Part shown: one piece after another, positions 5,550-48,086 of the stretch
Position numbering within the stretch: the first letter of the stretch is position 1
Layout: each line of letters starts with the position of its first letter
Origin: Candidatus Electrothrix communis
GTDB taxonomy: Bacteria; Desulfobacterota; Desulfobulbia; Desulfobulbales; Desulfobulbaceae
Assembly: GCA_030644725.1 (NCBI GenBank)
Contig: CP130629.1
Span: 4,417,501 to 4,481,500 of the forward strand
DNA: 64,000 nt
Direction of reading: 5' to 3'
Made by a program: the position numbers and the translations under genes
Notes under the pieces: model-generated
What the model was told of the DNA's origin: nothing
Seen by the model: the letters and a program-made list of their open reading frames with translations, nothing else
The model's database searches: none

Positions 5550-6005
5550 TCATCCTTTGAGAGCCGCTTTCAAATCCCTAATAAATGCTTTGACCTTCAA
5601 TGATCCGCCGTCCCGGAAAGGGTGGATTTTAATCGTACGACCGTCAGGGTGGACTATCCTGAAATCAGGATACCCATTGACGCCCTTTTCATTGGCCAAG
5701 GCTTTTTCTTCTTCGCCGTTATCAGGGTTAATTTTAATCCTGTAATGTTTGGATAAGATCTGTCTTATTTTGGCATTAGTGAGATACTTCTTGTTCATCT
5801 TTTTGCAGTATCCGCACCAGTCTGTATAGAAGAAGAGGATGTAGGGTTTATCCTTTTTCTGTGCTGCCTTCTCTATTTTTTCAAAGCTGGAGGCCTTGGT
5901 GTACCATTTGCTGGTTGTGACTGCCTCTGCGATGCGGATATTGCCGATCAAGATTGCACTGGCGATGGTTATAATTAGCAGGAGGGATTTGCTTGTATTT
6001 TTCAT
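5550..6005 (-). CDS. Secreted thioredoxin-fold protein (CGYC)
   Basis: 151-aa exported thioredoxin-like protein. The signal peptide is about residues 5-27 (SKSLLLIITIASAILI...AEA). The redox motif CGYC lies in FFYTDWCGYCKKM near residue 65, as in DUF255/DsbD-gamma-like domains, and a conserved GYPDFRI follows near 105. It probably reduces or isomerises thiols in the periplasm. I preferred the ATG at 6005, which gives a normal signal peptide; a TTG at 6044 in the same frame would add 13 polar residues and overlap the upstream gene. Confidence 0.7.
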   Translation of the reverse strand: MKNTSKSLLLIITIASAILIGNIRIAEAVTTSKWYTKASSFEKIEKAAQKKDKPYILFFYTDWCGYCKKMNKKYLTNAKIRQILSKHYRIKINPDNGEEEKALANEKGVNGYPDFRIVHPDGRTIKIHPFRDGGSLKVKAFIRDLKAALKG

Positions 6006-6024
6006 TTTTTTTAGTTTTAGATTG

Positions 6025-6615
6025 TTATGTTTCCGAAAGGTCAAATTGAGAGAACTCCTCCTCAGTGCATGGAATCACCAACGCCGCTTCTCCGTCGTTC
6101 TCTCTGATGCGATTCAGTTGCTGTAGGAATTCTGGTGTTGAGATATAGGACAACTGAAATCGTCTTCCTTTTTCCTTGAGAGGAAGCATTCCTATTCTCC
6201 CAAAAATTTCTGGGCGAGTGAAATCAGATCTACGCATCTCTAATGGTAGTTCTTTCTTCTTAGAGCCATGTACCAAGGTAACCGTTATCTTATCGAGAAA
6301 TTTACTTCCTCCTGCAATTGCGAAGTTCTGATAAGCTATAGAGTCTTGGTCTATTTTTCTAGGTAATGCATTAAGGTTAAAGTTTTCTTCATCCTTATAG
6401 TCAGATGGCGCATAAAGGACTTTATGATTGAAATTGAGCGTAAGAAAAAAAGTAACAACTAAAATAATTGGAAAGATCATGAGGAACCAAATGTACAAGC
6501 CCTGATGTTCAGCGTTAATAAACGGAAGAACGATTGTTCCACTTATCTCTGAAATTGCAGCAAAGATGGCTATTATGGTCAGAGGGTTTTTTATTGTCCC
6601 AACTTTTTCAGTCAT
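6025..6615 (-). CDS. Hypothetical two-helix membrane protein
   Basis: 196 aa. Two membrane helices lie near residues 9-30 and 40-62, followed by a soluble domain of about 125 residues with no motif I recognise. The ATG at 6615 has a GGAAAG ribosome site 5 nt upstream; a TTG at 6645 is possible. Its 3' end abuts the thioredoxin-fold gene on the same strand, so the two may be co-transcribed. Function unknown. Confidence 0.55.
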   Translation of the reverse strand: MTEKVGTIKNPLTIIAIFAAISEISGTIVLPFINAEHQGLYIWFLMIFPIILVVTFFLTLNFNHKVLYAPSDYKDEENFNLNALPRKIDQDSIAYQNFAIAGGSKFLDKITVTLVHGSKKKELPLEMRRSDFTRPEIFGRIGMLPLKEKGRRFQLSYISTPEFLQQLNRIRENDGEAALVIPCTEEEFSQFDLSET

Positions 6616-6658
6616 TACTTTCTTTCCATGTAATAGTTTTATCAACCTTTTTTTGATG

Positions 6659-8221
6659 CTAGACTTGAATTAAGCTGATTCCCTCCATCTCCACAGGTTG
6701 TTCCAACCCAAGCAGGTTCATCAGCGTCGGGGCAATATCCTTGAGCGCACCACCGTCCTTCAGCGTGCAGTCCTTATGCTCCTCACTGACCAGAATAAGC
6801 GGCACCGGATTCAGGGTGTGGGCTGTATGGGGCTGTCCGGTCTCCAGGTTGACCATAGTCTCGGCATTGCCATGATCCGCCGTGACCAACAGGGAACCGC
6901 CCATCTTCTGCACCTGTTCAGCAAGCCGACCCAGACAGAGATCCACGGTCTCACAGGCCTGCACCGCCGCCTCAATAACTCCGGTATGCCCGACCATATC
7001 ACCGTTGGCAAAGTTGAGGATGACCAGATCATAGGGCGTGCCTGCTGCCGCCTGATCCGTTAGCGTAGCCAATAAGCGGTCAGTGACCTCCACCGCACTC
7101 ATGGCCGGTTTGAGATCGTAGGTGGCTACATCCCGTGGGGATTCAATGAGGATACGGTCTTCGCCGGGAAAAGGTTCCTCTCCGCCGCCGTTGAAGAAAT
7201 AGGTAACATGGGCATACTTTTCTGTCTCCGCGATCCGTAGCTGATGCATACCCGCCTTACTCGCCTCTTCTCCGAGGATACGGGTCAGGCTCTGCGGAGG
7301 AAAGGCGATGGGAAAGGAAAAATCCGCTTCATATTCGGTCATGGTGACCAACTCCAACAGCTCAGGCCGGTTGCTGACATCAAAGCCTTGGAAGTTAGCA
7401 TCGGCAAAGGCATGGCAGAGTTCCCGCACCCGATCAGCCCGGAAGTTGAAAAAGACAACGGCATCGCCATCGTTGATCCTGCCCACTGGCTGTCCCTCAG
7501 CATCAAGGAGTACTGTGGGGTTGATGAACTCATCGGTTTCCTTGCGTGCGTAGGCATCCTTGACCGCTTGCAAAGGATCTTCAGCCGTTAGACCTTGCCC
7601 GTTGACCAGAGCCTGCCATGCTTTTTCTACCCGGTCCCAGCGGGTATCCCGATCCATAGCCCAGTAACGACCGGACACCGTTGCCACTTGGCCGCAGCCG
7701 ATCCGCTCAATAGCGGCAAGCAACTCTTCCATATAGCCTGCTCCGCTGGAGGGCGCAGTATCCCGACCGTCCATGAAGCAATGGATTTTGGCGTCAAGTC
7801 CTCTGGCTCCTGCCATTGCCAACAGGGCGGCCAGATGATTAAGGTGGGAATGGACCCCGCCGTCTGAAAGCAAACCGCAGAAATGAATTCGGCTGCCTGC
7901 GGCCTTGACCTGATCCATGACCTTGGTCAGGGCTGGGTTGTCGGCAAATTCACCCCGTTCCACAGCCCGGTTGATCCGAGTGTAGTCCTGATAGACAATT
8001 CGCCCAGACCCAATATTCAAATGCCCAACCTCAGAGTTACCCATCTGGCCTTCAGGCAAGCCGACCAGACCGTTATGGGCAACCAGGGTAGTCGAAGGAC
8101 AGTCCGCAGCCCAGCGATCCATATTCGGGGTGCGGGCCACGGAAACCGCATTGGTTGCTGATGCCGGGGCAAGCCCCCATCCGTCCAGGATTGCCAGGAC
8201 TACCGGCCTGTTGTCTGCCAT
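6659..8221 (-). CDS. gpmI: 2,3-bisphosphoglycerate-independent phosphoglycerate mutase
   Basis: 520-aa cytosolic enzyme interconverting 3- and 2-phosphoglycerate in glycolysis and gluconeogenesis. Metal-binding Asp13 lies in AILDGWG, the phospho-acceptor Ser63 in GQMGNSEVGHLNIG, and the C-terminal metal site in TADHGNAE. Length is normal for the family (about 510). The start ATG shares one base with the rsfS stop (ATGA on the minus strand), so rsfS and gpmI form a coupled pair. A second, distantly related mutase (ApgM type) lies at 51108-52370. Confidence 0.95.
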   Translation of the reverse strand: MADNRPVVLAILDGWGLAPASATNAVSVARTPNMDRWAADCPSTTLVAHNGLVGLPEGQMGNSEVGHLNIGSGRIVYQDYTRINRAVERGEFADNPALTKVMDQVKAAGSRIHFCGLLSDGGVHSHLNHLAALLAMAGARGLDAKIHCFMDGRDTAPSSGAGYMEELLAAIERIGCGQVATVSGRYWAMDRDTRWDRVEKAWQALVNGQGLTAEDPLQAVKDAYARKETDEFINPTVLLDAEGQPVGRINDGDAVVFFNFRADRVRELCHAFADANFQGFDVSNRPELLELVTMTEYEADFSFPIAFPPQSLTRILGEEASKAGMHQLRIAETEKYAHVTYFFNGGGEEPFPGEDRILIESPRDVATYDLKPAMSAVEVTDRLLATLTDQAAAGTPYDLVILNFANGDMVGHTGVIEAAVQACETVDLCLGRLAEQVQKMGGSLLVTADHGNAETMVNLETGQPHTAHTLNPVPLILVSEEHKDCTLKDGGALKDIAPTLMNLLGLEQPVEMEGISLIQV

Positions 8222-37444: not shown

Positions 37445-38371
37445 TTAACCTGCATAAACCTCATCAAGAATTGCCTTGCCACCCCTGGCCAGCAGGGTCT
37501 CAGCGAGGCTGACACCAATTTTTTCTGCGTCAGACGCTTTTCCGCTGAGTTGTTCTCTCAGGATGGTCTTTCCGTCCAAAGAGGCGATGAGGCCGGTAAG
37601 GGTGATGGTCTCCTTCTCAATAGTGGCAAAACCACCGATGGGTACCTGGCAGCCGCCTTCCAGGCGGAGGAGAAAGGCCCGTTCTGCCGAAACCGTTTCT
37701 GCTGTGTCGTGGTGATGGAGGAATTGAAGCCCGTCGAGCAGCTCTGTGTCTGCTATACGTAACTCGATACCCAGTGAGCCTTGACCGATGGCAGGCAGCA
37801 TCTGTTCTGAGGTGAACAGGGCCGTAATGCGTTTCTGCATGCCTAAGCGATTTAGGCCAGCCCCTGCCAGGATGATGGCGTCATATTCGCCTTCATCCAA
37901 TTTTCGCAGGCGGGTGTCCAGATTGCCACGGAGATCTTTGATTTCCAGATCAGGGCGTAGGCAGGCTAACTGCGATTTTCTACGTAGACTGGAGGTGCCG
38001 ATGACAGCTCCTTGCGGCAATGCCTCCACTGTTTCGTATTTCCCAGAAACAAAGGCATCCTGAGGGATTTCCCGTTTCGGAATAATAGCGACCTGCAAGC
38101 CTTCGGGCAACTCGGCAGGTACGTCCTTCATGGAATGCACGGCCAGATCCACTTGCCCATCCAGCAAGGCATCCTCAATCTCTTTAACAAACAGGCCCTT
38201 GCCACCGACTTTCGCCAGAGGGACATCCAAGATTTTATCGCCCTTGGTGAGGATTTTCACCAGCTCCACTGTGGTGCCAGGGTACTGCTGTTCAATCTGG
38301 TTTTTTACCCAGGTGGACTGGGTCACGGCCAGCAGGCTGGCCCGGGTTCCGATGCGTAGTATCTTTTTCAT
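37445..38371 (-). CDS. hemC: Porphobilinogen deaminase (hydroxymethylbilane synthase)
   Basis: 308-aa enzyme joining four porphobilinogens to hydroxymethylbilane for haem, sirohaem and B12. Conserved IGTRAS start, VHSMKDVP, GTSSLRR and the dipyrromethane cofactor Cys in LEGGCQVPIG. Start ATG 38371 has AGGGA 5 nt upstream; a longer frame from 38395 lacks support. Precedes cobA-hemD, the next step of the pathway. Confidence 0.95.
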   Translation of the reverse strand: MKKILRIGTRASLLAVTQSTWVKNQIEQQYPGTTVELVKILTKGDKILDVPLAKVGGKGLFVKEIEDALLDGQVDLAVHSMKDVPAELPEGLQVAIIPKREIPQDAFVSGKYETVEALPQGAVIGTSSLRRKSQLACLRPDLEIKDLRGNLDTRLRKLDEGEYDAIILAGAGLNRLGMQKRITALFTSEQMLPAIGQGSLGIELRIADTELLDGLQFLHHHDTAETVSAERAFLLRLEGGCQVPIGGFATIEKETITLTGLIASLDGKTILREQLSGKASDAEKIGVSLAETLLARGGKAILDEVYAG

Positions 38372-38420
38372 GCTTTCCCTGAAGTTGTACTGCACGTTTT
38401 ACTGGTTTTTCGTTTAAATC

Positions 38421-39074
38421 CTACCCGACCCAGCGGATAAAATGTTCTATCTCTCGTTTGCGTGTTCCTGTCCCTTTGGGTAGATGCTTCGGCATCCCGA
38501 TCATGCAGCCATTGAGTGCCCATTTCTTGGGTGGCAGGTCGAGGAGCTGCATAAACTGCGCATTTTTTGTCAGGCCGTTGGTGACTGAGAGCATCTGGAA
38601 TCCGACCCCATGCGCTGTTGCGGTCAGCCACATATTCTCCATGACATGTGCTAAGGCCTGCTCCGCAATGGGGGGGAAACCTTTTTTCTCTGCGGCCACA
38701 ATATAAAATGATCCCTCAGTGAGGCCGGGGATTCCTTTCTCTGCTGTGGTGCTGATTCGGTCGGCAAAGAATCCCATTTTTTTGCGGAGAAAAGGAAGAA
38801 ACTGAACAGCCATGCCGATCTTTGATGCTCCACTGCGGAGTTGGGCCTCAATGATCTGTCGGGCTTGATCCATTGGTTCTGTCCCTTGGCGGAAGATGAA
38901 GATTCGTCGACCCTCTTTGAGGGGAATTCCGGCCCCGGCTGCAAAGGGGGCGTACACCGCAGACTCGACGATTTTTTGCAGTACCTCATCTGGCACTTGA
39001 CCCGAAAAGCTGCGGCACGAACGGCGGGAGCGGATGACCTCCTCAAGGGCGGTAATCTGTTGCGAATCAGCCAT
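38421..39074 (-). CDS. Nitroreductase family protein
   Basis: 217-aa FMN-binding oxidoreductase. N-terminal EVIRSRRSCRSF is the family signature (RRSxRxF), with the VESAVYAPFA helix following and TATAHGVGFQMLS near the C-terminus. It reduces nitro, quinone or thiol-type substrates using NAD(P)H; the substrate is unknown. It lies 49 bp upstream of hemC and 3 bp after the pRiA4b-like gene, so probably one transcript. Confidence 0.82.
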   Translation of the reverse strand: MADSQQITALEEVIRSRRSCRSFSGQVPDEVLQKIVESAVYAPFAAGAGIPLKEGRRIFIFRQGTEPMDQARQIIEAQLRSGASKIGMAVQFLPFLRKKMGFFADRISTTAEKGIPGLTEGSFYIVAAEKKGFPPIAEQALAHVMENMWLTATAHGVGFQMLSVTNGLTKNAQFMQLLDLPPKKWALNGCMIGMPKHLPKGTGTRKREIEHFIRWVG

Positions 39075-39077
39075 TAT

Positions 39078-39758
39078 TTAATACGGGGGCTCTGCCGGTC
39101 CGGCATAACCACATCTTCCCGTTCTCGGGGAGTTGATGATGGGCATGAGGCTATGGTCCTGATGCTGTTCGTCTTTTGCATGTTTTTCACACAAAAGAGC
39201 AACCTCATCCTCACTTTCTGTGCAGTCCATGCATAGCCATGCCCCAGGTTTGCCGCATGCGCAGGTTTCTACTTCCGGCAGCTCGTTCCGGGCCATCAGG
39301 TAGATGGGATGCTCGTTCAGGGGTGTACCTTCTCTTTCGTTGACGACCTTGATCAGTGTCTCTGAGGAGTCTCCGAAATCATAGATATGCGTCAGTTCGA
39401 GCCCTGGATGGAAAACAGCGCTGACTTCCGAGTCCATTGCGATTTCTTCACCGAGGTGCCCTTTGGTTGAAAATTGGCTGAGGTGGCCGCAGCATTCCAG
39501 CCAGATTGAACGCAGATAGCTGTCCAGATCCTTTAAGGTCGCTGAACTGCATATTTCTAGGTGGAGCCAGAAATCGTTCAACCAAGCATCTTGGACTTTG
39601 AGATGATAGATTTTTTGTTCTTTTCCGGCTTTTGGGTCGCTTTTGCCGAGGGTGTCTTTGCGTTTGGGGCAGGCGGACAGATGTTTCACCATGCCGTTTC
39701 CTGTCATCTGTCGACCGCAGAAGGCGCAGGCACCACGAGTTTGTTTTGTTTGAGCCAT
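39078..39758 (-). CDS. pRiA4b ORF-3-like protein with flanking zinc-binding motifs
   Basis: 226 aa. An N-terminal C-x2-C...H-x4-C finger (CAFCGRQM...HLSAC) is followed by a pRiA4b ORF-3-like fold (about 50-160), including KDLDSYLRSIWLECCGHLS and LTHIYDFGDSSETLIKV. A second Cys-rich cluster (CACGKPGAWLCMDC, then CEKH) lies near 180-205. The family is poorly characterised and frequent on mobile elements. Start ATG 39758 has GAGGA upstream. Confidence 0.7.
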   Translation of the reverse strand: MAQTKQTRGACAFCGRQMTGNGMVKHLSACPKRKDTLGKSDPKAGKEQKIYHLKVQDAWLNDFWLHLEICSSATLKDLDSYLRSIWLECCGHLSQFSTKGHLGEEIAMDSEVSAVFHPGLELTHIYDFGDSSETLIKVVNEREGTPLNEHPIYLMARNELPEVETCACGKPGAWLCMDCTESEDEVALLCEKHAKDEQHQDHSLMPIINSPRTGRCGYAGPAEPPY

Positions 39759-39778
39759 ATTTTCCTCAATATTCCTGA

Positions 39779-40030
39779 TTAGGTGCGGGAGCCGCATCCA
39801 GCCTGCTTAGTGTTGGTTGTCCGGACCGAATCCTGTGTACGGTCTTTTGTACGGGGATGGTAGGCCAGAATTATATCTTCTTTGGGAACGTCGAGTTCCG
39901 CGAGTTCATCAGTAATCCCGGTTTTAGCTCTGTCCAGATAAGTAGGCGCATTGGTTGCGATTAGGAAGCATAATTCCGCATTCAGGAGAGCCAGAGCATT
40001 GATTGACTGTACATGCAGAGAGGACGTCAA
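39779..40030 (-). other. Doubtful ORF or decayed gene fragment
   Basis: An 83-residue frame with plausible codon pattern in the first part but no recognised domain; a second overlapping frame (39924-40160) begins with a plausible start. Together they could be one small gene broken by a shift near 40030. No homologue recognised. Confidence 0.25.
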
Positions 40031-40160
40031 GCGCCTGTCCTGCTGTCCCTTTCCTTCTACTTATTATTGAAGATGACTTATGTTCGATAAGCAGGTTTTC
40101 TCTTTTTCCGCTGTTAGGACACAGGAAGTCCTCTTGCGAATGATTTATTTCAGTAGTCAT

Positions 40161-40281
40161 ATCAATCTGTTTGAATATTTTTTTACTGTATCAGCTCCAA
40201 AATTTATATTCACTCCTAGTGAAGCTGAACCATCGGACGCGCTCGACTATAATGCAAAATCATTACAAAAAGCTAACTATA
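40161..40281. other. AT-rich spacer before gene fragment
   Basis: No ORF recognised. It lies on the left side of the decayed 3' end of the deoxyhypusine-synthase-like gene. Confidence 0.3.
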
Positions 40282-40403
40282 TCAAACCTCACCCAGCCTG
40301 TCCACAATCGCCGCTGCCAGCAGTGGGATCATCAGCTCGTGGTGGCCGGTGAAGTTGAAGCTCTTGCCGCCTTCCAGCGTGGGGCCGATGCACCACGTTG
40401 GTG
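40282..40403 (-). pseudogene. Decayed 3' fragment of deoxyhypusine-synthase-like gene
   Basis: About 107 bp (40297-40403) match the 3' end of the intact gene at 41665-41770, with weaker similarity down to the shared stop codon (TGA at 40282-40284). The fragment encodes the same protein tail (LEGGKSFNFTGHHELMIPL) apart from one extra base near 40383 that shifts the frame, and has many third-position differences, so the duplication is old. It ends abruptly at 40403, next to the 3' end of the AlbA_2 gene. Confidence 0.8.
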
Positions 40404-40416
40404 AAAAATAGGTTTT

Positions 40417-41580
40417 TCAATCCTGCTTCACTCCTGCCGCCCAAAGCGTCACCCTGAACGAGGCATGCTCCACATCAAAAACGGGCGGGCGTAGGTCACG
40501 TTCTTGATAATAATTGACCACTTTCTGCAACCCGCGCCCCACTCGGTCAGCCATTCTGTAATCTTTGAGCATCTGTGAAATAATCGGATTACGGTAATAG
40601 GAAATACCGGCCAGTGCCCGTGTTAAATTTAATGTATTCGGCAGGCTGCCCGGAGAAAACACCTCCAGGCGGTCGGCAAAGACGTTGAGGCGTATTCTCT
40701 GTCCGAAAATCGACCAGTCGCGGTGCATAAAAGCATTGACGATCAGCTCCCGAATAATGCCTGTATCATAGTTCGGGAGTTCTATCCTGTGGCCTGTTGC
40801 CGGATCAAAGGCAAGCTGAACACGACTGTGTCGCTTGATGAATCCGATGGCGTATTCAATGCACTGGACAATGCCGCAGTCTTTCGCCTGATAGTCTGTA
40901 ATCTCGCTGCCTGTATCCGGTCCCTCGAAACAGTTGCACTCAATGCCGCTTTGCGGAAGAAAACGCGAAGGCGTCCTGGTAAAGAAGAGAGCGCCAAGCA
41001 CGCTCACACGATTTTCTTCATCAATGCAGTGCAGATTGTACAGGAGCCGGTCAAGATCTGTCTCGTCGCAGTCTATACCCCGATAGGTTTCCACATAATC
41101 ACGAAAGCGCAGTATGTCGAACTGTTTGCGTTGATAGGGAAAGACCGAGGATACTTCGAAATGAAGGTGCTCGCCGTCCTGAAAAAGACGTACAAACTCC
41201 TCATTACTCGGTTCGATAGAAACTGAGCCAGCTCGAATATAGAACTTGTTTGATTTTTTTACCTTATAGGGTTTATGTCGGCCTCTGTCTATATGAATGC
41301 AGAGTATTCGTCTGTCGTCAATCAGTAAGGTTTCTATATCAGGGATGATGGATGGAAGAATATTGTTTCTGCATATGTTTACGATGCGTTCTTCGATTTT
41401 TTGTTCAATGTCTTCAAGCTCTCCGTTATCGCGTACACCGATATAGATTCTTCCGCCTTTCATATTGGCAAAGGCGACTATCTCTTTTGCTAAGGAATCA
41501 TTATGAAAGTCACATGATTTGAACTCGACACGGGAGCTTTCGCCTGCTCTTACCAATCTCTTGAATTCGTTGAGCTGCAT
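40417..41580 (-). CDS. AlbA_2 (Schlafen-type) ATP-binding protein
   Basis: 387 aa. N-terminal AlbA_2 domain (about 10-130) with the ESSRVEFKS start and AFANMKGGRIYIGV motif. C-terminal HATPase_c_4-type module (about 255-380) with IRELIVNAFMHRDW (N-box-like) and a GRGLQ glycine motif. Such proteins are annotated as transcriptional regulators or ATP-dependent helicases and are frequent in accessory regions. It lies between the intact deoxyhypusine-synthase-like gene and a decayed copy of its 3' end, which suggests arrival by integration or allele exchange. Confidence 0.8.
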   Translation of the reverse strand: MQLNEFKRLVRAGESSRVEFKSCDFHNDSLAKEIVAFANMKGGRIYIGVRDNGELEDIEQKIEERIVNICRNNILPSIIPDIETLLIDDRRILCIHIDRGRHKPYKVKKSNKFYIRAGSVSIEPSNEEFVRLFQDGEHLHFEVSSVFPYQRKQFDILRFRDYVETYRGIDCDETDLDRLLYNLHCIDEENRVSVLGALFFTRTPSRFLPQSGIECNCFEGPDTGSEITDYQAKDCGIVQCIEYAIGFIKRHSRVQLAFDPATGHRIELPNYDTGIIRELIVNAFMHRDWSIFGQRIRLNVFADRLEVFSPGSLPNTLNLTRALAGISYYRNPIISQMLKDYRMADRVGRGLQKVVNYYQERDLRPPVFDVEHASFRVTLWAAGVKQD

Positions 41581-41649
41581 CGAATATTTTCCGCTAAAAA
41601 AGTTGACGGGAAATTGTATGGAACGAGTCGCCAGAGTATACAGAGTATA

Positions 41650-42606
41650 TCAAGCCGTTTCCAACCTGTCCACAAGAGCCGCTGCCAGCAAAGGTATCAT
41701 CAACTCATGATGCCCTGTGAAATTAAACCCCTTACCCCCTTCCAGCGTAGGCCGATGCACCACATTGGTGGCAGGCCGATAGGCCCGGATAAAATCGAAA
41801 TTTGCTGTGGTGAATCGTTTCACCTCATGGCCCAGATTACGCACCACGGTCAGGGCCTTGAGAAAGACTTCCGGCAGCAGCACTGCTGAGCCGACATTCA
41901 GGTAGGCCCCGCCTTCCAGCTCGCTGACCAAGCTACAGAAGACCCGGAAATCATGATGGCTACATTGGCCGATGGCAGCACCATTGGCATCAGGATGAAT
42001 ATGGATAATGTCTGTTCCCACTGCCACATGCACGGTTACCGGGATATTCATCCGCCGGGCCTGAGCTAACAGGCTGTGCTCGTTAAAAGGAAAGCTTTCG
42101 CGGAGCAGCATATTGCCCACAGCTTCGCCCAAGCCGATACCTTCTTCCGCACCTTGGTTGATAGCCCGATTAAGCACCTCGCCGGTCTCTTTGGCCGCGC
42201 CGAAAGCACCGGCTCCTAGCACGCAGGCCACATCCTCGGAGGTTCGACCCACCATGGCAATCTCGGTGTCGTGAATAATCCCGGCCCCGTTCAGGGCAAT
42301 GGCCGAGATAACCCCTCGTTCCATCAGGTCAATCAGGATTGGATTCAGGCCCACCTTGATGACATGGGCCCCCATTCCTAACAGCACAGGTCGTTCCTTC
42401 TTGATTGAGGTAGTTAGCCGGTCGATGAACTCTGGAAAGTCCACGCCAGCAAACTGGTTTGGCAGGCCGCTGATAAGCTCGGCAACGCTCATGTCGGGCC
42501 GAACCGGGCGGGCAAAATCGTCCACCGTCACTTTGGAATGGCGGCCATGGACGGAGTAGGTATTCAATCCGCTGAAATCAAGAGGGGAGGGCGCTTTTTT
42601 TTTCAT
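41650..42606 (-). CDS. Deoxyhypusine-synthase-like protein
   Basis: 318 aa. NAD-binding Rossmann-type core with VLLGMGAHVIKVGLNPILIDLMERG and ALNGAGIIHDTEIA, resembling the deoxyhypusine synthase family. The canonical catalytic EAVSWGK lysine motif is not visible; the end reads GGKGFNFTGHHE. Bacteria lack eIF5A, so the substrate is unknown; some bacterial relatives are homospermidine synthases. Start ATG 42606. It overlaps no gene; gmhA lies 65 bp upstream on the same strand. Confidence 0.6.
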   Translation of the reverse strand: MKKKAPSPLDFSGLNTYSVHGRHSKVTVDDFARPVRPDMSVAELISGLPNQFAGVDFPEFIDRLTTSIKKERPVLLGMGAHVIKVGLNPILIDLMERGVISAIALNGAGIIHDTEIAMVGRTSEDVACVLGAGAFGAAKETGEVLNRAINQGAEEGIGLGEAVGNMLLRESFPFNEHSLLAQARRMNIPVTVHVAVGTDIIHIHPDANGAAIGQCSHHDFRVFCSLVSELEGGAYLNVGSAVLLPEVFLKALTVVRNLGHEVKRFTTANFDFIRAYRPATNVVHRPTLEGGKGFNFTGHHELMIPLLAAALVDRLETA

Positions 42607-42671
42607 CTTATGTGCCGTGGTTAATCCTGTACTTCTGTTGCAAGTCTTCAAGTACCGAAAGGGTTGCAGGG

Positions 42672-43265
42672 TTACTCATCTCCCCAGCGTCCGAACATCA
42701 TCTTTTCCACAATTTCGCAGACCAGATGCTCAATCCAAAGATGGGCCTCCTGGATACGGGGTGTGTAATTGGACGGTACATTGAGAACCATGTCACAATG
42801 GGGATGTACTCCGTCTTTGGGGGTAATCGTGCCACCGGTCAGGGCCACGGTTGTTAGCCCTATTTTTTTTGCTTCGGCAAGGGCCTGCACCACATTGGGT
42901 GAGGTGCCCGAGGTGGTCAGCCCCCAAGCCAGATCTTCGGGTTTTCCCAAGGCCTGGATCTGTTTGGTAAACACCATCTCATAAGAGAAATCATTGCCGA
43001 TAGCGGTCAGGATTGAACTGTCGGTGCTCAGAGCAATAGCAGGGAGAGGGCGCCGATTAAGGAGAAAGCGGTTAACAAATTCCGCCGCTACGTGCTGGGC
43101 ATCGGCTGCGCTTCCACCGTTTCCGAAAATGAGCACCTTGCCCCCGTTATTAAAGGTGGCAACGATTTCCTCTGCGAGCTGAATGACTTTGTCCGACGAT
43201 TCTTTGGCAAATGCTTCTTTTGCCAGAGTGGATTGACTCAGGCGGGTATAAATAAATTCGTTCAT
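42672..43265 (-). CDS. gmhA: Phosphoheptose isomerase
   Basis: 197-aa SIS-fold enzyme converting sedoheptulose 7-phosphate to D-glycero-manno-heptose 7-phosphate, the first step to LPS core heptose. Conserved GNGGSAADAQHVAAEFVNRF, LTTSGTSPNVV and the metal-binding HxxxH/E near HLWIEHLVCE. Length is normal (about 190-195). It implies a heptose-containing envelope polysaccharide. Confidence 0.93.
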   Translation of the reverse strand: MNEFIYTRLSQSTLAKEAFAKESSDKVIQLAEEIVATFNNGGKVLIFGNGGSAADAQHVAAEFVNRFLLNRRPLPAIALSTDSSILTAIGNDFSYEMVFTKQIQALGKPEDLAWGLTTSGTSPNVVQALAEAKKIGLTTVALTGGTITPKDGVHPHCDMVLNVPSNYTPRIQEAHLWIEHLVCEIVEKMMFGRWGDE

Positions 43266-43309
43266 CGCTGCTATGGTATGTTTTGCTTTTCCTGTGAAGG
43301 AAAATGAAA

Positions 43310-43343
43310 AAGCGTTTCCGCACCCGGACGCACGAAAACGCTT
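43310..43343 (-). terminator. Rho-independent terminator of adk
   Basis: 8-bp stem (aagcgttt / aaacgctt) with further pairing possible, followed on the minus strand by TTTTTC; lies 28 nt after the adk stop. Confidence 0.7.
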
Positions 43344-43370
43344 CTGATGATCAAAGAAATGATCGAAGAG

Positions 43371-44045
43371 TTACGCCAGTTGGCTTATAATTTCTTCAGA
43401 AATTTCATTGATCGCCTTGGAACCGTCCACAGAGATCATTTTGGCGCTGCCGGTGTTCTTGAAGTAGTTGACCGCAGCCATGGTGCCAGAGTTGTCGTCA
43501 TAATAGATGTCATGCCGTTTGCCGATAGCCACTTCGTCCTGATCATCGTCCCGCATGCTCAGTTCGCCGCCGCAGACCCGGCAGACCAGCTTGCCGTCTT
43601 TTTCTACTGGCTTGATAGCATCAAAAGCGATGTGGTTGGGATGGTTGTTGTCGTTGGCACAGAGGCGACGTCCCATGATTCGTTCTTTGGCAATTTCGCG
43701 GTCGAGCTTAATCTCAATAACCTCGTCAAGGGCCATGCCGGATTCGGTCAGAGCCTTATCCAGGGCCTCGGCTTGGGCCAGCGAACGGGGGAAACCGTCC
43801 AGCAGCCAGCCTTTTTCTTTGGATTTGCCCAGGGTCTCCAGTACCATAGGAATGGTGATATCATCGGGAACCAGATCGCCCTTGTCAATGTACTCTTTTG
43901 CCTTCTTGCCAAGTTCGGTGCCGCCCTTGATGTGCTCGCGGAAAATAGCTCCAGATTCAATATGATCCATGCCGTATTTTTCTTTAACAATGGCACCCTG
44001 GGTACCCTTACCACTGCCATTTGGTCCGAAAGTAAGAATGTTCAT
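43371..44045 (-). CDS. adk: Adenylate kinase
   Basis: 224-aa enzyme for AMP + ATP = 2 ADP. P-loop GPNGSGKGTQ at residues 7-16, DGFPRS near 88, and a LID with C-ANDN... then CRVC. The first Cys pair of the zinc LID is reduced to one Cys followed by Asp (C-x2-D), so zinc binding is uncertain. Start ATG 44045 has AAGGAG 7 nt upstream; a longer frame to 44222 has no support. It ends with a clear terminator. Confidence 0.93.
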   Translation of the reverse strand: MNILTFGPNGSGKGTQGAIVKEKYGMDHIESGAIFREHIKGGTELGKKAKEYIDKGDLVPDDITIPMVLETLGKSKEKGWLLDGFPRSLAQAEALDKALTESGMALDEVIEIKLDREIAKERIMGRRLCANDNNHPNHIAFDAIKPVEKDGKLVCRVCGGELSMRDDDQDEVAIGKRHDIYYDDNSGTMAAVNYFKNTGSAKMISVDGSKAINEISEEIISQLA

Positions 44046-44318
44046 AACTGACTCCTTTGAAAGTAAGATGAAAGAACAGTACATCAACCTGTTCTGTTGG
44101 TAACAGAGGATAATCGTCCGCAGAAAACATCCGGGACAGCGAGAAGCCCCGCTCATTGAAACACGACTATACAGCAACTGAAAGGCTTCTGCCATGAAAA
44201 ATATGGGCGTATATTTTGACAACTGCGTACAAAGAGAGTAAGAATGAGCCCGAAATATGCCTGCCTCGCAGGGGAAACTTCATGCGCTAACAAAATACTT
44301 TTACAATATAAATTTACC

Positions 44319-45623
44319 ATGAAACACGTGAATGTAGGGCTTATCGGATTCGGTACAGTGGGCAGCGGTCTGGCCGAGGTGCTTCTTTCTCAGCAGGAAC
44401 GTCTTCAGCAGCGCAGCGGCCTCACTATTCGCCTAGCCAAGGTTGCTGCTCCCTCAGCAAAGGAGTTGCCAGCCCAGTTTGCTGATACCGCCTTGGTCAA
44501 TGATGCTGCCGAACTGATCAATGATCCAGATATTGACATTGTTGTGGAGCTGATCGGCGGCATTCAGCCTGCCAAGACCTTTGTTATGGAGGCTATTGCT
44601 GCTGGCAAGCATGTGGTGACCGCCAATAAGGCCCTACTTTCCCAGGAGGGCAAGGAAATCTTTGCCGCTGCGGCAGCCAAGGGTGTTGAGGTGGGATTCG
44701 AAGCCAGTGTGGGCGGCGGTATTCCGTTGATCAAGGGATTGAAGGAAGGTTTGGTGGCCAATAATATCCTTTCTATTATGGGGATCCTTAACGGGACAGC
44801 CAACTACATCCTTACCCGGATGACCGACGAGGGCAGCGCTTTTGCCGATGTGCTCAAGGATGCCCAGGATTTGGGTTTTGCTGAGGCCGATCCCACCTAT
44901 GATGTGGAGGGTATTGACACAGCCCATAAGCTGGCCATCCTCATGACTATGGCCTATGGCATGAATATTACCCATGACGAGATTGCCACTGAAGGCATCA
45001 GTGGCATTGAGCCCATCGACATAGAGTTTGCTCGTGAGTTTGGCTGCCGGATCAAGCTGCTGGCCATTAGCCGTAATCATGGTGACCATGTGGAGGCACG
45101 GGTGCATCCGACCATGGTGCCGAATTCCCATCTGCTGGCCTCTATCAGTGGGGCCTATAATGCGGTCCATTTTAATGGTGATATGGTGGGTAATGTCTTG
45201 CTTTACGGTCAGGGTGCGGGCAAGATGCCCACTGGTTCTGCGGTTGCTGCGGATGTGGTGGATATAGCTCGCGACATCGCTGCCGGTTCCGTGGGCCGGG
45301 TGCCTTCGCTCTCCTATCTGCCGGAGAACATCAAGGATCGGGCCGTGACCCCGCTGGATCAGCTGTCCTGTCCCTATTACTTCCGTATCACGGCGTTGGA
45401 TCAGCCGGGTGTGCTGGCTGCTGTGTCCACGGTGCTCAGTCGGCATGAAATCAGTATTGAGTCGGTGATCCAAAAGGGGCGTGAGGAGGGCGAGCCGGTC
45501 TCTATTGTTATGCAGACGCATACTGCTGCCGAATCAGCAGTTGCCTCGGCCTTGGCAGAGATTGATGCTCTGGAGGCTATCACCGCGCCTACGGTGCGGA
45601 TTAGGATGTTGGAGGGGGAGTAA
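44319..45623 (+). CDS. hom: Homoserine dehydrogenase
   Basis: 434-aa NAD(P)-dependent enzyme of Thr/Met synthesis. N-terminal VGLIGFGTVGSG Rossmann motif; catalytic region with GILNGTANYI and the family signature region DPTYDVEGIDTAHKLAIL; a C-terminal ACT domain (about 350-430) for feedback control by threonine. Start ATG 44319 fits the family; ATG 44244 with a GAGAG site would add 25 unusual residues. The length is typical (about 435). Confidence 0.92.
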   Translation: MKHVNVGLIGFGTVGSGLAEVLLSQQERLQQRSGLTIRLAKVAAPSAKELPAQFADTALVNDAAELINDPDIDIVVELIGGIQPAKTFVMEAIAAGKHVVTANKALLSQEGKEIFAAAAAKGVEVGFEASVGGGIPLIKGLKEGLVANNILSIMGILNGTANYILTRMTDEGSAFADVLKDAQDLGFAEADPTYDVEGIDTAHKLAILMTMAYGMNITHDEIATEGISGIEPIDIEFAREFGCRIKLLAISRNHGDHVEARVHPTMVPNSHLLASISGAYNAVHFNGDMVGNVLLYGQGAGKMPTGSAVAADVVDIARDIAAGSVGRVPSLSYLPENIKDRAVTPLDQLSCPYYFRITALDQPGVLAAVSTVLSRHEISIESVIQKGREEGEPVSIVMQTHTAAESAVASALAEIDALEAITAPTVRIRMLEGE

Positions 45624-45776: not shown

Positions 45777-45891
45777 GGAGAAAAATAGCCTGCCCCGCGC
45801 CCCGCAGGCAAACCGCAGGATTCCTGCAAGGAGGACAACATGAGGGCACAATTGAAAATGGTACTTTTCTTGAGCACATTGTTGGTATTGA
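45777..45891 (+). repeat. Leader and signal-peptide region, copy 1 of duplication
   Basis: Matches 47923-48030 at most positions over the untranslated leader, the ribosome site (caaggaggacaa), the start codon and the first about 17 codons. A short inverted repeat gcagg/cctgc (45815-45819 with 45823-45827) precedes the ribosome site. Copy 1 has 7 extra bases near 45796. Confidence 0.75.
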
Positions 45892-47711
45892 TATCAGGCC
45901 AGGCGCAGGGGGCGGATATCATCGTGGATGCGGGCGGAATCTGTACCTTGGCCGATGCGATCACTGCGGTCAATAATGATGCGGACACCGGAGGCTGTGT
46001 CGCCAGCGGGATTTATGGCGATGACACTATCACCTTGGCGGCTGATGTCTTCCTTAGTGTCGCCCTTCCGCAAGTCACCACCACGATCACCCTTGAGGGC
46101 GATGGGCATAAGATTGACGGCCAGAACAACAGTGCAGTAGGCTCTGTGCTGACAATCGGCAACGAGGGCGACCTAGTCCTGAACGGGGCTACGGTCACCG
46201 GCGGGAACACGTCTGGCGACGGCGGAGGGATTAACAATTGGTTAGGCGGTGCAGTTACGCTGACCGATTCCACAGTCAGCGGAAATTCAGCGCGGTGGGG
46301 CGGAGGGATTTACAATTACAGCGGCACAGTCACGTTGACCAACTCCACAGTTAGCGAGAACTCGGCAGACGAAGGCGGGGGGATTGTAAATTACGACGGG
46401 ACAGTCACGCTGACCAGCTCCACAGTCAGCGTGAACTCGGCAGTAGGCGCCAGCGGCGGGATTGAGAATTGGTTAGGTGGTGCAGTCACGCTGACCGATT
46501 CCACAGTCAGCGGAAACATAGCGGGGGGCGACGGCGGCGGGATCAGTAATTTTTGGGAAGGAGGGCCTGGCTATTGGAACAATTCAGTCACGCTGACCAA
46601 CTCCACAGTCAGCGGCAACACAGCGGGGGGCTCGGGCGGAGGGATTAATAATCTATGGGAAGACGGGTTTGAAGGCGGCGGCATAGTCACATTAACCAAC
46701 TCCGCAGTCAGCGAGAACTCGGCATCCGACGGCGGAGGGATTTGCAATTGGGGCGACGGCACAGTCACGCTGATCAACTCCACGGTCAACGGAAACACAG
46801 CAAATGGCTTTGGCGGGGGGGTTGGGAATCTGTGGAAAGACGGGTTTGAAGGCGGCGGCATGGTTACGCTGACCAACTCCACAGTCAGCGAGAACTCGGC
46901 AGACTACGGCGGAGGGATTTGCAATTACGAGGGCACAGTCGCGCTGACCAATTCCACAGTCAACGGAAATTTAGCAAATGACTTTGGCGGGGGAGTTGAA
47001 AATTTCTACGGCACAGTCACGTTGACCAATTCCACAGTCAACGAAAACACAGCGGCAGGCTATGACGGTGGGGGAGTTCATAATTACAACGGCGGTATAG
47101 CCACCCTGGTTAACTCCACAGTTAGCGGAAATACAGCAGCGAGCCACGGCGGGGGGATTGAAAATTACAACTCTGGCTATTTGAGCAATTCAGTCACGCT
47201 GACCAACTCCACGGTCAGCAATAACTCAGCATCCTACGGCGGAGGGATTGACAATTACGATGGCACAGTCACGCTGGGCAGCTCAATCGTCAGCGGGAAT
47301 ACAGCTACAGCTGTTTCCGTTGGCGATGAAGTCTATACCGAAAGCGGCGATATCACCGCAGACAACCATAATCTCTTTGGCCACAGCAGCGAGACGAATG
47401 CCGAGGCCTTCTATAATTTCACGCCCGGCGGCAGCGATGTCAATGCTACCAGCGACAGCACGAACATGCCTCTGAGCTCCATTCTTGAAACGACCTTGGC
47501 TGACAACGGTGGCCCCACTCAAACCCATGCCCTGGTTGCAGGCAGCCCGGCTGTTGATCTGGACGCATCATGCAGCACGGGGTTGACCATAGACCAACGC
47601 GGCTCCCCCCGCCCGCTCGGCAGAGGCTGCGATGCGGGTTCCTTTGAATCTACCTACAGCGCAAAATTAGAGGCCATGCCGTGGGTGTACCTCTTGCTTC
47701 TGAAGAAGTGA
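45840..47711 (+). CDS. Secreted CSLREA/choice-of-anchor-Q beta-helix protein
   Basis: 623 aa. Signal peptide about residues 5-24. An N-terminal CSLREA-like domain (CTLADAITAVN near 35) is followed by 13 repeats of the type (A/T)VTLTNSTVSxNxAxxxGG with GGGI.N spacers, giving a right-handed beta-helix (about 70-490). A choice-of-anchor-Q domain follows (LADNGGPTQTHALVAGSPAVD near 560). It ends with MPWVYLLLLKK, also found in modified form in the neighbour at 48098. Likely cell-surface or secreted; function unknown. Near-identical repeats suggest recent expansion. ATG 45840 has AGGAGG 5 nt upstream. Confidence 0.8.
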   Translation: MRAQLKMVLFLSTLLVLISGQAQGADIIVDAGGICTLADAITAVNNDADTGGCVASGIYGDDTITLAADVFLSVALPQVTTTITLEGDGHKIDGQNNSAVGSVLTIGNEGDLVLNGATVTGGNTSGDGGGINNWLGGAVTLTDSTVSGNSARWGGGIYNYSGTVTLTNSTVSENSADEGGGIVNYDGTVTLTSSTVSVNSAVGASGGIENWLGGAVTLTDSTVSGNIAGGDGGGISNFWEGGPGYWNNSVTLTNSTVSGNTAGGSGGGINNLWEDGFEGGGIVTLTNSAVSENSASDGGGICNWGDGTVTLINSTVNGNTANGFGGGVGNLWKDGFEGGGMVTLTNSTVSENSADYGGGICNYEGTVALTNSTVNGNLANDFGGGVENFYGTVTLTNSTVNENTAAGYDGGGVHNYNGGIATLVNSTVSGNTAASHGGGIENYNSGYLSNSVTLTNSTVSNNSASYGGGIDNYDGTVTLGSSIVSGNTATAVSVGDEVYTESGDITADNHNLFGHSSETNAEAFYNFTPGGSDVNATSDSTNMPLSSILETTLADNGGPTQTHALVAGSPAVDLDASCSTGLTIDQRGSPRPLGRGCDAGSFESTYSAKLEAMPWVYLLLLKK

Positions 47712-47922: not shown

Positions 47923-48030
47923 GGAGAAAAATAGCCTGTCCCGCAGGCAAGCCGCAAGATTCCTGCAAGGAGGACAATATGAGGGCACAACTGAAGGATC
48001 TACTTTTCTTGAGCACAATGTTGGTACTGA
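47923..48030 (+). repeat. Leader and signal-peptide region, copy 2 of duplication
   Basis: Second copy of the 45777-45891 leader. It opens a truncated reading frame (47979-48086) rather than a full gene. Confidence 0.75.
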
Positions 48031-48086
48031 TGGATATTGGAGGAGGAGGTTCTGATGGTGCTATGGCCCAACCCAATGGCAGGTAG
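47979..48086 (+). pseudogene. Truncated signal-peptide remnant of beta-helix gene
   Basis: Starts with MRAQLKDLLFLSTMLVL, matching the start of the 45840 protein, then becomes a Gly-rich unrelated stretch and stops after 35 residues. Its ribosome site is intact. It may be the head of a deleted paralogue. Confidence 0.7.

What the first reader, a model, noticed from the sequence alone, without database searches (positions are those of the whole stretch)
40282..42606. AlbA_2 gene between an intact gene and a diverged copy of that gene's 3' end
The last about 107 bp of the deoxyhypusine-synthase-like gene (41665-41770) recur at 40297-40403 in the same orientation, with a one-base insertion and many third-position changes. 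Everything between is essentially one gene (AlbA_2/HATPase, 40417-41580). An element that integrates at a gene's 3' end and supplies a replacement tail would leave exactly this layout, as would allele exchange with a relative. No integrase is visible, so this could be a compact, non-autonomous cargo unit that uses a protein-coding gene as its site.
Basis: partly seen in the sequence, partly recalled or inferred. Interest (0 to 1): 0.62.

Follow-up and report, generated by a model that had tools for sequence, protein, structure and literature searches.

The report
Single-gene insert at a gene's end
A single accessory gene has been slotted into the very end of a conserved bacterial gene, bringing a replacement gene ending (with a likely built-in promoter) and pushing the old ending aside, and related bacteria carry other inserts at the same spot, with no recombinase gene found beside them.

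Summary
The repeat is real: 40278-40403 matches 41646-41770 at 80% over 126 bp (E about 1e-24). Sister genomes show more. The left copy is a chimera: its first 80-90 nt are a diverged, frameshifted, foreign-looking piece of the gene, while its gene end matches the relative G004 at 36 of 36 columns. The intact gene is the mirror image, native up to a 13-bp block (41678-41690 / 40310-40322) and foreign after it. Joining the native halves in silico rebuilds the G004 empty site (121 of 126). So a ~1.37-kb unit carrying only the SLFN_AlbA_2/HATPase gene entered by one reciprocal crossover in that block.

Of 7 genus genomes with the gene (own included), 3 have AlbA_2 there, others have other cargo, 4 have displaced tails, and two have stacked inserts. 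Both window tails hold a promoter-like sequence (TGGACA-17-TATAGT/TATACT) that recurs in relatives.

No tyrosine recombinase lies at the site in seven genomes searched. Best reading: CIME-like, non-autonomous accretion at a protein-gene 3' end. Whether an unlinked site-specific enzyme or RecA-type crossover made it is nearly even. The target gene is GSU2086-family, not true deoxyhypusine synthase.

The parts
41650..42606 (-). Target gene, GSU2086-family (deoxyhypusine-synthase-like); native up to the block at 41678-41690, its last 28-41 nt supplied by the insert
41678..41690 (-). 13-bp block TGCTGGCAGCGGC in the intact gene where native sequence changes to insert sequence (crossover interval, gene-proximal copy)
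41644..41677 (-). Replacement gene end (B'): codes ..LVDRLETA* and holds promoter-like TGGACA-17-TATACT (41672-41644, 10 of 12, TG before -10)
40417..41580 (-). SLFN_AlbA_2 + HATPase_c_4 protein, 387 aa, the only gene of the inserted unit
   Evidence: relatives at the same site in G003 (95% aa) and G001 (92% aa)
40323..40403 (-). Insert-derived arm (A'): diverged, frameshifted fragment of the target gene, closest among the loci held to other genera (G016 89%, G023 87%)
40310..40322 (-). 13-bp block TGCTGGCAGCGGC in the displaced copy (crossover interval, distal copy)
40255..40309 (-). Displaced native gene end plus native downstream flank; alignment columns 90-126 (window 40278-40313) identical to G004, 36 of 36; promoter-like TGGACA-17-TATAGT (40304-40276)
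39779..40030 (-). Remnant of an xisI-like gene downstream of the displaced end (XisI match below Pfam cut-off; 94% DNA match to the G004 region that encodes a full XisI)
39078..39797 (-). Conserved downstream flank gene (PRiA4_ORF3-like, below cut-off) that marks the far side of the site in the genus

Best explanation
The 3' end of the GSU2086-family gene is an integration and accretion site. A non-autonomous unit of about 1.37 kb, circular or circle-equivalent, carries its own copy of the gene's tail plus the AlbA_2 gene. It entered by a single reciprocal (Campbell-type) crossover inside a 13-bp block that lies 26-38 bp before the stop codon. Shown: the reciprocal chimeric junctions, the uninterrupted site in a relative, different cargoes at the same gene end, and stacked inserts with gene tails between them. 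Inferred: each insert completes the reading frame and restores a promoter at the gene end, so the host gene stays intact, the new cargo can be transcribed, and the displaced native end keeps driving the older downstream genes. Also inferred, and the weakest step: the crossover was made by a site-specific recombinase supplied from elsewhere (CIME-like, integrase lost or never carried).
For: Mosaic: among sites where the two window tails differ and G004 matches one of them, columns 6-80 give 14 intact-like and 2 displaced-like, columns 94-126 give 0 and 9 (permutation p = 5e-4 over all 41 sites, noisy flank included; Fisher 2.7e-5 on the 25 sites up to column 126). Joined native halves match G004 at 121 of 126 and encode the G004 C-terminus. 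AlbA_2 is absent next to the gene in G002, G004, G005 and G007. Displaced tails: G000 one, G001 two, G003 two (one decayed), G005 one. Stacking: in G003 the sequence after AlbA_2 resumes as the gene end and ORF206 flank seen directly at the gene in G005; in G001 it resumes as the gene end and the leader of the repeat array seen directly at the gene in G016/G077/G080. Transfer: AlbA_2 4-fold-site divergence G000-G003 is 18/153 against 233/752 pooled over five neighbour genes (p = 3e-7), G000-G001 43/146 against 397/884 over seven (p = 4e-4). Promoter: both window tails score 10 of 12; the block is identical at 52 of 53 columns between the displaced tails of G003 and G005, against 31 of 60 just upstream; gene ends in three other genera score 9-10 too.
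Against: PF00589 matches: none lies at the site in G000-G005 or G016, and G002 and G004 have only two each, so a shared dedicated tyrosine recombinase in trans is not apparent; serine recombinases were not searched. The insert's arm has 80-90 nt of gene-like sequence upstream of the block, what homologous recombination would use. Crossover position is resolved for the window only. The promoter is a consensus match (7 found in the region, 4.3 +/- 2.2 expected), and some intact ends are weak (G005 7 of 12, G007 5 of 12). The AlbA_2-adjacent tail in G003 is weak on its own (E 0.17, 0.02; missed). For G000-G001 the lower AlbA_2 divergence is not seen against adk alone (20/57, p = 0.5).
Confidence: 0.48

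Rival explanations
1. RecA-type homologous integration: donor DNA from a relative (gene tail + AlbA_2), circularised or taken up as a tail-flanked fragment, integrated by a single crossover in the shared tail. No site-specific enzyme is needed; after the first event the tails themselves allow spread and precise loss.
For: The window's foreign arm is 80-90 nt of coding-type gene sequence (differences 3/0/14 by codon position), nearest among the loci held to other genera. The older displaced tail of G003 also matches the gene's protein well upstream of the block, and that of G005 aligns with it. No PF00589 recombinase at the site in seven genomes. AlbA_2/arm junctions differ in G000, G001 and G003.
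Against: All tail copies seen are short (at most 126 nt of a 957-nt gene) and the cargoes are unrelated. In the G001, G005 and g10 copies and the AlbA_2-adjacent G003 copy the tail model's match begins only 0-14 nt upstream of the block, little for RecA, though later decay could explain that.
Confidence: 0.4
2. Local tandem duplication of the gene's 3' end around AlbA_2, followed by decay of the distal copy.
For: Same orientation and short distance; a frameshift in the copy.
Against: Decay would hit all codon positions and both halves; instead the first part differs mainly at third positions and the gene end is identical to G004 while the intact gene's end is not. AlbA_2 is less diverged between species than most neighbours.
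Confidence: 0.06
3. The similarity of the tails mostly reflects a dispersed promoter module and not recombination of the gene end.
For: A tail-like promoter block sits beside a restriction-modification pair at a different place in G001 (C175:14663-14692).
Against: Similarity extends 80-90 nt into the coding region upstream of the promoter in the window, and the 30-nt module gave only 3 matches in 8 genomes, two of them at this locus.
Confidence: 0.04

Closest known systems
Prophage e14 at icd (E. coli K-12)
   Same: Integrates at the 3' end of a protein gene, supplies the end of the reading frame and leaves a displaced 163-bp icd' copy (passages of PMC6379469)
   Different: A 15-kb prophage; here one gene and no recombinase; in the window the foreign piece of the displaced copy lies upstream of the crossover block
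CIMEs (cis-mobilizable elements) and tandem accretion of ICE/IME/CIME at gene 3' ends
   Same: Elements lacking integration and transfer genes but keeping the att ends, with later elements accreting at the same gene end (passages of PMC5704250)
   Different: No ICE/IME and no PF00589 integrase seen at the occupied sites searched; cargo down to one gene or a non-coding repeat array
Integron gene cassettes
   Same: Single-gene units stacked next to a fixed site with a promoter reading into them (analogy, recalled)
   Different: No intI or attC was identified (no dedicated search); each unit re-creates a protein-gene end and its promoter
SLFN_AlbA_2 / HATPase_c_4 proteins (PF04326, PF13749)
   Same: The cargo scores well over both Pfam cut-offs
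   Different: Relatives elsewhere (63% in L058 with full flanks; 64% in L057, upstream flank only 134 bp) showed no flanking repeat

Membership tests
CIME (cis-mobilizable element) | Flanked by attL and attR derived from a gene end | tested here: met
   Reciprocal chimeric tails at 41678-41690 and 40310-40322; att function itself not shown
CIME (cis-mobilizable element) | Integration and transfer genes absent | tested here: met
   Only the AlbA_2 gene lies between the tails
CIME (cis-mobilizable element) | Descends from an ICE/IME whose integrase used the same site | tested here: inconclusive
   No PF00589 match at the site in G000-G005 or G016; none of the insert ORFs given to Pfam is a recombinase; tail peptide not matched in plasmid or phage records, exact tail DNA pattern not in viral contigs
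CIME (cis-mobilizable element) | Tandem accretion at the site | tested here: met
   G003 and G001 stacks; order of events ambiguous; the G003 tail is weak by sequence alone
CIME (cis-mobilizable element) | Excision and mobilisation by a helper | not testable with these tools
   needs cells or population reads
Autonomous IME/ICE/prophage at a protein gene | Encodes its own integrase | tested here: not met
   none in the 1.37-kb unit
Integron cassette array | intI beside attI, attC in each cassette | not tested
   no dedicated intI/attC search was run; no Rfam match at gathering score in 38000-44500 and no PF00589 match at the site
SLFN_AlbA_2 protein | Pfam PF04326 over its cut-off | tested here: met
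   88.8 bits against 25.3
Deoxyhypusine synthase (host gene) | TIGR00321/PF01916 over cut-off | tested here: not met
   24.7 against 304 bits; 19.4 against 27; belongs to NF052581 GSU2086

The most novel reading that the evidence does not exclude
A promoter-and-gene-tail cassette system: the end of one conserved gene serves these bacteria as a fixed landing site at which single-gene or even non-coding units insert and stack. Each brings a new gene end plus promoter, so host gene, new cargo and older cargo all stay expressed, driven by an unlinked recombinase. It would work like an integron without an integrase beside it and with a protein-gene tail as the recombination site.
Probability: 0.18. 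Interest if true: 0.75.

Novelty: new variant of a known kind. Interest (0 to 1): 0.48.

Why it matters
Gene-end integration is known for phages and conjugative elements that carry an integrase. Here a unit as small as one gene shows the same geometry, its junctions are resolved to 13 bp, and the site appears to double as the promoter for what is inserted. If the crossover is site-specific, an unlinked recombinase acting on a protein-gene tail should exist in these Desulfobulbaceae; if it is RecA-type, the locus shows how a gene tail can become a self-perpetuating hot-spot for accessory and defence-type genes.

Tried and rejected
Simple diverged-allele reading (either copy as a whole): rejected by the mosaic. 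Local duplication: disfavoured (see rivals). AlbA_2 as the part that carries the tail everywhere: of 43 rows (tblastn E up to 1e-20; several rows are the same place fetched more than once), 10 are the gene-end locus; of the other 33, one (L061) could not be tested and 3 (L060, L062, L073) show some same-strand repeat across the gene, but the exact tail motif was absent from those loci. L057 and L059 had flanks of only 134 and 143 bp on one side. Mobile carriers: the unit had no DNA match in plasmids or phages, AlbA_2 none in viral contigs, the tail peptide none in plasmids or phages, the exact tail DNA pattern none in viral contigs. Wider spread: by tail peptide, 132 of 193 genomes of the order have the gene end and only 3 (G000, G003 and a weak one, G161, not followed) a second copy. 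The DNA model over 73 family genomes (strict filters, list truncated) also gave second copies 372-470 bp downstream in G016, G077, G078 and G080, all weak (E 2e-4 to 0.03). The 21-bp repeat array is a dispersed satellite in several of these genomes, so its presence at the site may have another cause; in the six genomes its leader was matched only at this site and at G016:C2. A recombinase next to the site: PF00589 matches number 38 in G000, 3, 3 and 7 in G001, G003 and G005, 2, 2 and 4 in G002, G004 and G016; none is on the site's contig within 300 kb. G007 and serine recombinases were not searched. Literature: (653 papers held two of three terms) lists 12, none holding 'deoxyhypusine synthase'; GSU2086 occurs in one paper (listing only). 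Papers seen: passages of PMC6379469 and PMC5704250; all others as search listings. Structure prediction and fold search were not used; by sequence one solved structure matches AlbA_2 (3lmm, E 8e-7).

Full report
Observation. The window lies in a one-contig genome of 4.85 Mb (G000). A record with the same locus as the sister genome G001 is titled Desulfobulbaceae bacterium S24.Bin023. The repeat is real: 40278-40403 against 41646-41770, 80% over 126 bp, E about 1e-24. Between the copies lies one substantial gene of 387 codons, SLFN_AlbA_2 plus HATPase_c_4. The gene whose tail is repeated is a GSU2086-family gene; deoxyhypusine-synthase models fall well short of their cut-offs. I call it 'the gene' below.

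Relatives. Of 37 genomes searched, own included, 32 have the gene; in the genus 7 of 8 do (G006, 69% complete, does not). AlbA_2 follows the gene in 3 of these 7: G000, G003, G001. The other four have different content before the conserved downstream gene (39078-39797 in the window): G007 almost nothing (116 bp), G004 small ORFs and an XisI gene, G002 a DNA methyltransferase and an EcoO109I-type endonuclease, G005 an ORF206 and a piece of a large gene. G003 carries, besides AlbA_2, ORF206, a 2069-aa LamG-domain protein and further ORFs. In 6 of 7 genomes of other genera that I opened (G009, G010, G011, G018, G020, G023) DNA like the window's hemC or cobA/hemD genes (names recalled) follows the gene closely; in G016 the repeat array does.

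Chimeric junctions. G004 serves as the uninterrupted reference; it is the closest relative at three of five neighbour genes (G003 is closer at hemD/cobA and about equal at the nitroreductase). Against it the window's two tails are reciprocal chimeras. Among sites where they differ and G004 matches one, columns 6-80 favour the intact copy 14 to 2, columns 94-126 favour the displaced copy 9 to 0. The change lies in a 13-bp block shared by both, TGCTGGCAGCGGC, at 41678-41690 and 40310-40322, 26-38 bp before the stop codon. The displaced copy therefore consists of a foreign, frameshifted arm (nearest among the loci held to other genera: G016 89%, G023 87%) and the native gene end, identical to G004 at 36 of 36 columns. 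The intact gene has a native body and a foreign end. Joining the two native halves gives 121 of 126 matches to G004 and its exact C-terminus. One reciprocal crossover with a circle-like unit of 1368 bp explains all of this. The two columns that go the other way (34, 37) and the noisy flank beyond column 126 are included in the permutation test (p = 5e-4); up to column 126 alone Fisher's test gives 2.7e-5.

Accretion. Displaced gene ends were found in 4 of the 7 genus genomes: G000 one, G001 two, G003 two, G005 one. In G003 the DNA just after AlbA_2 resumes as a decayed gene end and the flank of ORF206, which in G005 directly follows the gene. In G001 it resumes as the gene end and the leader of a 21-bp repeat array, which in G016, G077 and G080 directly follows the gene. 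So inserts are stacked with gene ends between them; which came first is not fixed, because a new unit could enter either tail. The G003 copy next to AlbA_2 is weak by sequence alone (E 0.17, 0.02; missed) and rests on this synteny. Four g10 genomes have a weak second gene end 372-470 bp downstream (sequences of three of them). The repeat array is also a dispersed satellite elsewhere.

Transfer. AlbA_2 is less diverged between species at 4-fold sites than its neighbours: 18/153 against 233/752 for G000-G003 (five genes pooled, p = 3e-7; each gene alone p below 0.003), 43/146 against 397/884 for G000-G001 (seven genes, p = 4e-4, but not against adk alone, 20/57) and 43/148 against 229/464 for G003-G001 (four genes, p = 2e-5). 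The junctions between AlbA_2 and the following tail differ in all three genomes, and the DNA between gene and AlbA_2 is only partly alignable. This leaves room for repeated insertion, later deletion or allele exchange.

Promoter at the gene end. Both window tails contain TGGACA, 17 bp, TATACT or TATAGT with TG before the -10, the two best promoter-like sites of the 5-kb region, although the region's total (7) is not in clear excess of shuffles (4.3 +/- 2.2). Of the 34 gene ends scored (35 loci listed, G015 cut off), 11 reach 9-10 of 12: G000-G004 and G010, G011, G020, G023, G069, G071 (three other genera). The rest score 3-8, among them G005 (7) and G007 (5). The displaced tails of G003 and G005 agree at 52 of 53 columns over this block against 31 of 60 just upstream. 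I read this as a retained promoter. The crossover block lies just upstream of the -35, so a unit replaces gene end and promoter together, and the displaced end keeps the old promoter for the old downstream genes. This is inference; nothing was measured. ORF206 reads the other way, so not every cargo would use it.

Enzyme. None of the insert ORFs given to Pfam is a recombinase, and no PF00589 match lies at the site in G000-G005 or G016. G002 and G004 have only two such matches each, so a shared dedicated tyrosine recombinase is not apparent; G007 and serine recombinases were not searched. The narrow crossover and unrelated cargoes favour a site-specific enzyme in trans. The long gene-like arm and the absence of an evident enzyme favour RecA-type integration. 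I put the first only slightly ahead (after I lowered it); the Campbell-type geometry itself is much firmer than the choice of enzyme.

Comparison. The geometry is that of e14 at icd, where a 163-bp displaced icd' copy remains (passages of PMC6379469), and the accretion resembles CIMEs, defined as elements that lost integration and transfer genes but kept attL and attR (passages of PMC5704250). It differs in its size (one gene), the lack of any related integrase element found, and the promoter. I file it as a new variant of a known kind that works like a CIME; membership is not proven because descent from an ICE or IME and mobilisation were not shown.

Noticed in passing
G000:C1 (e.g. L116, L117, L118, L115, L119, L123, L125): A multi-copy element with a tyrosine-recombinase gene matched in two overlapping frames; the seven copies compared share about 2.3 kb at 98.5-100% identity, and 12 places give the identical match score. 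G001-G005 and G016 have only 2-7 PF00589 matches against 38 here.
   Followed up: partly
L093 (G001:C175) 5943-7521, tail-like block near 7660-7710: A methyltransferase/EcoO109I-type endonuclease pair sits behind a gene-end-like promoter block at a place other than the GSU2086-family gene; a pair of the same families follows the gene in G002.
   Followed up: partly
L092 (G016:C2) about 1600-2250: A partial gene tail, 21-bp repeat array and second tail stand away from the gene, near an ORF that by eye resembles the PD-DExK-type ORF found after displaced tails in G003 and, as a remnant, G005.
   Followed up: partly
L038 4330-4566, L041 10130-10480 and elsewhere: Arrays of 21-bp imperfect repeats dispersed in several family genomes but not matched in the window's genome.
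   Followed up: partly
window 40417-41580: The AlbA_2 protein matches a pAgo model of PADLOC over almost its whole length (E 3e-18), as if that model held a fused AlbA_2 part.
   Followed up: no
window 45777-45892 and 47923-48031; 46201-47305: A same-strand 84% repeat on either side of a strongly repetitive coding region (ORF 45840-47711).
   Followed up: no
L060 and L062: AlbA_2 relatives (53-54%) in Desulfobacteraceae records lie between same-strand repeats (longest 329 and 79 bp); the exact tail motif studied here is absent from these loci.
   Followed up: no
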